From Candidatus Ghiorseimicrobium undicola (GTDB lineage: Bacteria; Omnitrophota; Gorgyraeia; Ghiorseimicrobiales; Ghiorseimicrobiaceae), in contig PCWA01000092.1 in NCBI GenBank assembly GCA_002796125.1, positions 1-60,038 on the forward strand: DNA of 60,038 bases, in the 5' to 3' direction. The translations under genes and the position numbers were made by a program. Below, piece after piece: positions 58,454-59,005 of the stretch. Numbering within the stretch: the first letter of the stretch is position 1; every line of letters starts with the position of its first letter. The notes under the pieces are model-generated. The model saw nothing but the letters and a program-made list of their open reading frames with translations, did not search any database and was not told where the DNA came from.

Positions 58454-58861
58454 ATGAAATATGCCTCGCCGCAGCTTGAAGATGGTTATACAAGGATTGC
58501 TAATGAGCTGTTAGAGGCAATTATAATCTATCCTTTTCGCGCGGTTGAATTAAAAATTGTGCTTTTTATCATCAGAAAAACCTACGGCTGGAAAAAGAAA
58601 ACGGAAATTATCAGTTACGGAGCGATTGCCAGAGAGCTAAAAACCGATATCCGTTACGTAAAAAGACTAATGAATAAACTCGTTTCTGACAGGGTTATTT
58701 TTAAAGTCAAGATAGGCAGGCAGAATCTTATCGGCTTAAACAAAAACTATACAGCTTGGATGTTGTGGCTTTGCTCATCGGAAAGCAAACCACCGCCCTC
58801 TGGCTTGTGGAAAACCGACAATGCCGGTGGCGGGCAGTCCACTGGGGTAGTGGTTAGCTGA
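58454..58861 (+). CDS. Phage replication protein O-like (N-terminal domain)
   Basis: LEDGYTRIANELLEAIIIYPFRAVELKIVLFIIRKTYGWKKKTEIISYGAIAREL. Confidence 0.8.
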   Translation: MKYASPQLEDGYTRIANELLEAIIIYPFRAVELKIVLFIIRKTYGWKKKTEIISYGAIARELKTDIRYVKRLMNKLVSDRVIFKVKIGRQNLIGLNKNYTAWMLWLCSSESKPPPSGLWKTDNAGGGQSTGVVVS

Positions 58862-58914
58862 CCACTATGATAGTGGCGCAGCGGCCACCAAAAGTAGTGG
58901 TTTGCAGGCCACCA
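58825..58914. repeat. Four palindromic iterons, candidate replication origin
   Basis: 20-bp units at 58825, 58848, 58871, 58895: YRGTGG-N8-CCACYR. Confidence 0.8.
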
Positions 58915-59005
58915 CATATAAAGAAAGAAAGAAAATTAAAAATAGTAGTAAAGAAAGGCCGTTAATTCTGTTGATAAAAAACTGTTTTTAAATTAATTAA
59001 AAATT

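What the first reader, a model, noticed from the sequence alone, without database searches (positions are those of the whole stretch)
58825..59005. Lambda-type origin: four palindromic iterons at the end of a RepO-like gene
Seen: CGGTGG-CGGGCAGT-CCACTG (58825), TAGTGG-TTAGCTGA-CCACTA (58848), TAGTGG-CGCAGCGG-CCACCA (58871), TAGTGG-TTTGCAGG-CCACCA (58895). Start spacings are 23, 23 and 24 bp. An AT-rich tract (58915-59005) follows. Knowledge: the lambda origin has four palindromic iterons within gene O followed by an AT-rich unwinding region. Inference: this element can replicate autonomously, with the 58454 product as initiator.
Basis: partly seen in the sequence, partly recalled or inferred. 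Interest (0 to 1): 0.8.

Follow-up and report, generated by a model that had tools for sequence, protein, structure and literature searches.

The report
Replication origin of an integrated mobile element
The four palindromes are real and very probably form the replication start site of a mobile DNA element that has inserted itself into a bacterial tRNA gene; in this family a phage-type starter protein sits next to a short sequence that looks like the one bacteria use to open their own chromosomes.

Summary
Four GTGG-N8-CCAC palindromes lie at 58825-58914, 23, 23 and 24 bp apart. The window expects 0.14 such sites, and the 1.83 Mb genome holds six in all. The gene at 58454 is a true Phage_rep_O protein (84 bits), but short: it lacks lambda O's C-terminal half. 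About a dozen related loci, mostly in Omnitrophota, share one cassette: promoter, leader ending in a terminator hairpin, short RepO, palindromic iterons whose sequence differs by lineage, A-rich DNA, then a ~40-bp conserved module, TAGTAGTAAAGAAA-GGGC-TGTGAATTC-TGTGGATAA. The module resembles the DnaA-trio/DnaA-box unwinding system of bacterial chromosomes and is absent from 154 other RepO loci tested. The window's copy is somewhat degenerate. The element's ends were found: a 41-bp tRNA-Ala half repeat at window 43126 and beside a tyrosine integrase on contig C103. Two sister genomes keep the uninterrupted site. The element is therefore integrative and at least 21.5 kb. "Lambda-type" is only partly right: no P-like loader was found, and DnaA-box-like sites were added. 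Most likely RepO dimers bind the iterons and host DnaA opens the adjacent A-rich DNA. The architecture is shown; binding, unwinding and excision are inferred.

The parts
58825..58844 (+). iteron 1, CGGTGG-CGGGCAGT-CCACTG (inside the RepO coding region)
   Evidence: exact match; 4 sites against 0.14 expected
58848..58867 (+). iteron 2, TAGTGG-TTAGCTGA-CCACTA (perfect arms; overlaps the RepO stop codon)
58871..58890 (+). iteron 3, TAGTGG-CGCAGCGG-CCACCA (non-coding)
58895..58914 (+). iteron 4, TAGTGG-TTTGCAGG-CCACCA; its half-site starts 47 bp before the TAGTAG tract, as in most relatives (47-49 bp)
58454..58861 (+). RepO-like initiator, 135 aa, winged-helix fold of MarR/ArsR type, without lambda O's C-terminal half
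   Evidence: PF04492 84.2 bits; TIGR01610 59.7 bits; phrog_277 replication initiation O-like; AF2 model and PDB fold search
58915..59005 (+). AT-rich tract (18.7% G+C), presumed unwinding region
   Evidence: A-rich part conserved in relatives
58943..58951 (+). TAGTAGTAA, DnaA-trio-like repeat
   Evidence: the only TAGTAGTA in the window; present in all 13 aligned loci
58969..58977 (+). TGTTGATAA, degenerate DnaA box (one mismatch to TGTGGATAA, the complement of TTATCCACA); relatives mostly have the perfect box
58806..58814 (+). TGTGGAAAA, DnaA-box-like sequence (one mismatch) just before iteron 1; it also codes for the conserved LWKT, so protein constraint could explain it
   Evidence: read from sequence; similar in relatives
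58391..58438 (+). leader hairpin followed by a T run just upstream of the RepO start (intrinsic terminator, possible attenuator)
   Evidence: 16 pairs, 9 G-C; 11-sequence alignment with 6 pairs changed on both sides
58305..58335 (+). sigma-70-like promoter position, TTGACA then TAATCT 17 bp on; TTGACA aligned in all relatives that cover it
   Evidence: alignment A3; the -10 is weak and the consensus scan did not list it
58114..58293 (+). 59-aa conserved protein upstream of RepO, 64-65% identical to proteins at the same place in two related elements
   Evidence: L216, L217
59006..59908 (+). 300-aa AAA+ ATPase with two C-terminal transmembrane-like helices, next to RepO in several lineages; role unknown
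43126..43166 (+). attL: 41-bp repeat of the 5' half of tRNA-Ala(CGC); identical to C103:4578-4618 beside the integrase
   Evidence: empty site in relatives
43287..43309 (+). presumed integrase arm-type site ATGGACACTTTTTGGACACCAGA, identical to C103:4486-4508 in the 3' end of the integrase gene

Best explanation
58303-58980 is the replication module (initiator gene plus origin) of an integrative mobile element inserted in the tRNA-Ala(CGC) gene of an Omnitrophota bacterium. Transcription starts near 58340, and a terminator hairpin just before the start codon limits how much RepO is made. RepO, a short winged-helix protein acting as a dimer, binds each palindromic iteron at the 3' end of its own gene. 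The array, one repeat every 23-24 bp and ending a nearly fixed 47-49 bp before the TAGTAG tract, strains the A-rich DNA beside it. Host DnaA, bound at the adjacent DnaA-box-like sites, captures one strand on the TAGTAG tract and brings in the host helicase, so a single ~130-aa element protein suffices. Shown: the array, the protein family, the conserved cassette and spacing, the element's ends and the empty site. Inferred: RepO-iteron binding, DnaA recruitment, hairpin attenuation, excision and replication of the excised circle.
For: Iterons far above chance. Phage_rep_O family membership. Related loci keep inverted half-sites although the sequence changes by lineage (GTGG/CCAC, GTGA/TCAC, GGGG/CCCC), with the last unit 47-49 bp from TAGTAG in 7 of 8 informative loci and 53 in the eighth. 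The trio-to-box module has 0.76 mean pairwise identity, against 0.44 for the iterons and 0.25-0.32 for the next 84 nt. 8 full module matches in 392 phylum genomes, 6 beside RepO hits and 2 at contig ends that carry iterons. Module absent from the 154 RepO loci outside the six closest, of 160 tested. RepO is sporadic, 24 of 392 genomes. Integrases lie just downstream of RepO in relatives. 41-bp att repeat, 23-bp arm repeat and empty site in G002 and G003. Lambda O binds each iteron as a dimer and stresses the AT-rich region (PMC6022878).
Against: No binding, unwinding or excision data exist. The window's second box has one mismatch, its first box has five, and the trio-to-box spacer is 17 nt, so the published BUS search rule (16 nt at most, PMC8287927) is not met in the window nor, in my parse, in most relatives. 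Iterons are degenerate or not scored in some relatives (L211, L217, L219, L220, L221). RepO is only 1.2 kb from the contig end, so a helicase loader could lie in the unsequenced gap. That C38 and C103 are two parts of one element is inferred from repeats and synteny, not from reads.
Confidence: 0.82

Rival explanations
1. A strict lambda-type origin: RepO alone opens the AT-rich DNA and an element-encoded loader (the ATPase at 59006 or a gene in the gap) delivers the helicase; DnaA plays no part.
For: O-family protein, four iterons and an AT-rich tract as in lambda. An AAA+ ATPase follows directly, is linked to RepO in several lineages, and its fold resembles clamp loaders, RuvB, MuB and TnsC. 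The window's DnaA boxes are degenerate.
Against: The protein lacks the C-terminal half that in lambda O binds P (PMC6022878). Profile search gave no DnaC or lambda P match, and the ATPase ends in two membrane-like helices. Most related elements have no ATPase, only a recombinase and small ORFs, yet keep the trio/box module.
Confidence: 0.2
2. The palindromes are operators: the RepO-like protein is a MarR-type repressor controlling itself or the downstream ATPase gene, not an initiator.
For: AF2 model is closest to MarR/ArsR repressors; the array lies 92-181 bp upstream of the ATPase start.
Against: Genes downstream of the array differ between relatives (ATPase, HTH genes, recombinases) while the array stays with the RepO 3' end and the trio/box module. 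The RepO promoter is about 500 bp away. Four phased sites at a nearly fixed distance from AT-rich DNA fit an origin better.
Confidence: 0.08
3. The conserved TGTGAATTCTGTGGATAAG stretch is kept because it encodes the start (GTG) of a small protein, MNSVDKS, and is not a DnaA site.
For: In six relatives (L212, L213, L217, L220, L020, L221) a small ORF begins there with M-N-S-V-D-K or similar.
Against: Nucleotide conservation stops at the box (0.32 mean identity in the next 42 nt); L210, L214, L016, L021 and the window have no such ORF; the upstream TAGTAGTAAA part is conserved and non-coding.
Confidence: 0.1
4. A decayed remnant: the element is defective and the origin is no longer used.
For: Degenerate DnaA boxes, the weakest copy among aligned loci; an extra 15-bp tRNA fragment at 42970 hints at older events.
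Against: RepO, the ATPase and the integrase are open and the iterons are the most regular of all loci; proteins of the same clusters occur on other contigs.
Confidence: 0.15

Closest known systems
Phage lambda ori and O protein (J02459)
   Same: N-terminal Phage_rep_O DNA-binding domain; four hyphenated palindromes of 18-20 bp at 20-24 bp spacing (lambda 39034, 39054, 39078, 39101) in or at the initiator's own gene; AT-rich DNA next to the last iteron.
   Different: Lambda iterons lie mid-gene in a 299-aa protein with a P-binding C-terminal part; here the protein is 135 aa and ends inside the array. The P gene follows in lambda; here an AAA+ ATPase with membrane-like helices. The trio/box module and the leader terminator are not part of the lambda layout as I know it.
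Basal unwinding system (BUS) of bacterial oriC (PMC6669920, PMC8287927)
   Same: Order on one strand: TAG repeats, short G-rich spacer, then TGTGNATAA boxes, the same polarity as DnaA-trios 3'-GAT-5' next to DnaA boxes.
   Different: Found behind a phage-type iteron array on a mobile element; fewer regular trios; spacer of 17 nt in the window against a published maximum of 16; window box degenerate.
Iteron plasmids (RK2, F, R6K; review PMC10797057)
   Same: Plasmid-coded winged-helix initiator on phased repeats beside an AT-rich DUE, with host DnaA boxes.
   Different: Direct-repeat iterons bound by two-winged-helix Rep proteins of another family; here palindromes and a Phage_rep_O protein.
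Phage satellites such as PICMI and PLE (PMC10803314, PMC7145576)
   Same: Integrase, AlpA/HTH_17 protein, own replication gene and origin, site-specific insertion, no capsid genes seen.
   Different: No helper phage known; PICMI replicates with a primase; this element is at least 21.5 kb and carries a restriction system, kinase and regulators.

Membership tests
Phage_rep_O (PF04492 / TIGR01610) | match of the N-terminal domain above curated cut-offs | tested here: met
   84.2 bits against 28.7; 59.7 against 45.5
lambda-type origin | several palindromic iterons in or at the O gene | tested here: met
   lambda annotation for comparison
lambda-type origin | AT-rich unwinding region directly after the last iteron | tested here: met
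   18.7% G+C at 58915-59005
lambda-type origin | C-terminal domain of O that binds P | tested here: not met
   135 aa, low-confidence model after about residue 105
lambda-type origin | adjacent P-type or DnaC-type helicase loader | tested here: inconclusive
   next gene is a general AAA+ ATPase without a loader match; the contig ends at 60038
lambda-type origin | initiator binds the iterons as dimers | not testable with these tools
   needs footprinting or EMSA
BUS-type DnaA origin | DnaA box with at most 2 mismatches within 16 nt of at least three NAN trios | tested here: not met
   window: box with 1 mismatch but 17-nt spacer; no hit under the rule
BUS-type DnaA origin | trio and box conserved across related origins | tested here: met
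   0.76 mean identity against 0.25-0.32 in following DNA
BUS-type DnaA origin | DnaA binds and unwinds | not testable with these tools
   needs protein
tRNA-integrated element with tyrosine integrase | integrase next to a tRNA and a repeated tRNA part at the far end | tested here: met
   C103:3496-4557 integrase, tRNA-Ala 4581-4654, 41-bp repeat at window 43126
tRNA-integrated element with tyrosine integrase | uninterrupted site in relatives | tested here: met
   G002 and G003: gspE-gspF-pilins-tRNA-Ala(cgc)-AMMECR1 in one stretch
prophage / phage satellite | capsid, tail or packaging genes, or helper dependence | tested here: inconclusive
   no such gene recognised among the genes searched in the visible part; not every small ORF was searched and the gap is unread

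The most novel reading that the evidence does not exclude
A family of Omnitrophota integrative elements uses a composite origin in which a minimal phage-type initiator (a DNA-binding domain only) on palindromic iterons positions a chromosome-type DnaA trio/box unwinding module, so that host DnaA replaces both the C-terminal half of O and the phage helicase loader.
Probability: 0.45. Interest if true: 0.7.

Novelty: new variant of a known kind. Interest (0 to 1): 0.52.

Why it matters
It links two initiation systems usually treated apart, phage O iterons and the bacterial DnaA unwinding system, in one small, conserved, testable cassette. It also gives a delimited mobile element, with att sites and an empty site, in a phylum about whose mobile elements my one literature search turned up nothing specific. 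If it works, the cassette could show how an initiator with only a DNA-binding domain starts replication, and it is a candidate replicon for building genetic tools for uncultured Omnitrophota.

Tried and rejected
(1) A pure-palindromy array scan with 6-bp arms failed on lambda itself, my positive control, so I relied on the half-site test and on the spacing. (2) Rfam: nothing at gathering threshold; weak matches in the leader and origin are chance. (3) A serine recombinase as the window element's integrase: none in the genome; a tyrosine integrase was found instead. (4) Host oriC next to dnaA as a comparison for the module: only scattered weak DnaA boxes near dnaA, no clear trio, so left open. 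(5) The ATPase as a DnaC or lambda P homologue: no family support. (7) viral contigs with the single protein: no relatives; with the alignment, only distant phage RepO loci without the module.

Full report
OBSERVATION. The core GTGG-N8-CCAC is expected 0.14 times in the window and found 4 times, all here; the whole 1.83 Mb genome has 6, and the only cluster is this one. The gene at 58454 is a real Phage_rep_O protein. Its stop codon lies in iteron 2, so the array straddles the gene's end. The following tract is 18.7% G+C.

RELATED LOCI. A profile of 22 homologues found RepO in 24 of 392 genomes of the phylum: sporadic, as for a mobile gene. The closest loci share one arrangement. It runs: a TTGACA promoter; a leader ending in a terminator hairpin directly before repO, with 6 of 17 pairs changed on both sides; a short RepO; iterons; an A-rich stretch; then TAGTAGTAAAGAAA-GGGC-TGTGAATTC-TGTGGATAA. 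The iterons keep their inverted form while their sequence differs between lineages. Where scored, the last one starts 47-49 bp before the TAGTAG tract in seven of eight loci (53 in L021). The module from TAGTAG to the box has 0.76 mean pairwise identity, against 0.44 for the iterons and 0.32 and 0.25 for the next two 42-nt blocks. It is absent from all but the six closest of 160 RepO loci from genomes and viral contigs. An exact-pattern search of 392 genomes gave 18 hits, of which 8 are the full module: 6 beside RepO, and 2 at the ends of contigs C43 and C57 of G003, directly after iterons, as expected where an assembly breaks in a repeated element. The pattern read backwards gave about 8 hits, so the other ten are background.

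WHAT THE MODULE RESEMBLES. [quoted passage not shown] PMC8287927). The match is imperfect. Under the published search rule (box with at most 2 mismatches, spacer at most 16 nt) the window does not qualify, because its spacer is 17 nt; most relatives also fail in my parse. The window copy has TGTTGATAA, one mismatch. I therefore call it DnaA-trio/box-like. A rival, that the box codes for a small protein start in six relatives, is weakened by the abrupt end of conservation.

THE ELEMENT. The contig ends at 60038, 1.2 kb past RepO. The genome has no serine recombinase of the type found beside RepO in several relatives but has four tyrosine recombinases. One, on contig C103, is 67% identical to the integrase downstream of RepO in L016 and 59% to that in L020. 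It ends 24 bp before a tRNA-Ala(CGC) gene. A 41-bp stretch there (C103:4578-4618) recurs exactly at window 43126-43166, where no complete tRNA exists; only these two perfect copies exist in the genome. A 23-bp sequence inside the integrase end (C103:4486) recurs at window 43287, as integrase arm sites would. In sister genomes G002 and G003 the genes left of 43126 (gspE, gspF, pilins) and those right of the tRNA on C103 (AMMECR1, RsmE, MtaB) lie in one uninterrupted stretch with a single tRNA-Ala(CGC). So the element runs from window 43126 through the contig end, across an unread gap, to C103:4577: at least 21.5 kb. Its visible genes include a BglII-like restriction endonuclease with its methyltransferase, a PLD nuclease, a histidine kinase with response regulators, the RepO cassette, the ATPase, a HerA-like ATPase, a YdjM protein, an HTH_17 protein and the integrase.

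THE ATPASE. It is a small family (30 proteins) that recurs with RepO: the best-matching clusters of both sit on contigs of equal length (77744, 13396 and 17609), and L022 has both. One member is fused to a tyrosine recombinase. The model is AAA+ with two C-terminal membrane-like helices; fold matches are broad (clamp loaders, RuvB, MuB, TnsC). I do not assign it a loader role.

MECHANISM. In lambda, O binds each iteron as a dimer, and the O-some stresses the AT-rich region (PMC6022878; PMC7466680). The RepO model here is a MarR/ArsR-type winged helix, consistent with dimers on palindromes. The protein lacks the part that in lambda contacts P, most relatives have no candidate loader, and all the close ones keep the box module. 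The simplest account is that RepO bends and strains the DNA and host DnaA opens it and brings the helicase. Every step after "iterons present and conserved" is inference.

VERDICT. Observation confirmed; interpretation right in kind but not in detail; a new variant of known origin types on a newly delimited integrative element.

Noticed in passing
window 46111-47629: Type II methyltransferase followed by a BglII-like restriction endonuclease (PF09195, 68.8 bits), inside the element.
   Followed up: partly
window 49895-51613: One open frame joins a response-regulator receiver-like region to a beta-ketoacyl synthase-like region, followed by an acyl carrier protein-like gene, a 4HBT thioesterase and a histidine kinase with several receivers: an unusual signalling and lipid cluster that lies within the element's limits (mostly read by eye).
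   Followed up: no
window 42970-42984: A further 15-bp copy of the tRNA-Ala start (ATTGGGGCTGTAGCT) left of attL, perhaps a trace of an earlier insertion.
   Followed up: no
window 49176-49727: DUF6933 protein matching PADLOC candidate defence family PDC-S63 (71.6 bits).
   Followed up: no
window 45272-45947: Two small genes 51% and 66% identical to a pair about 8 kb from RepO in the Hainich Omnitrophica locus L022; probably further shared element genes.
   Followed up: partly
P0150: A relative of the 59006 ATPase fused to an N-terminal tyrosine recombinase domain, suggesting that the ATPase works with integration.
   Followed up: no
L211, L213, L216, L246: Related RepO elements with large serine recombinases end at the 5' end of a miaB-like gene, overlapping its start, so this branch seems to use miaB as insertion site.
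   Followed up: partly
L022 10001-10582: A longer RepO (207 aa) in which the A-rich and TAGTAAAGAAAG stretch is coding (ERNIYKENSKER), with a C-terminal motif KQPVAIKEVIRSIT shared by P0010 and P0012-P0019.
   Followed up: no
G003 C43 and C57 ends (L229, L241): Both ~300-kb contigs end within the RepO/origin cassette, followed by two different recombinase elements: at least two copies in one genome.
   Followed up: partly
L021: The same cassette in a bin labelled Candidatus Vogelbacteria, either misbinned or a transfer between phyla.
   Followed up: no
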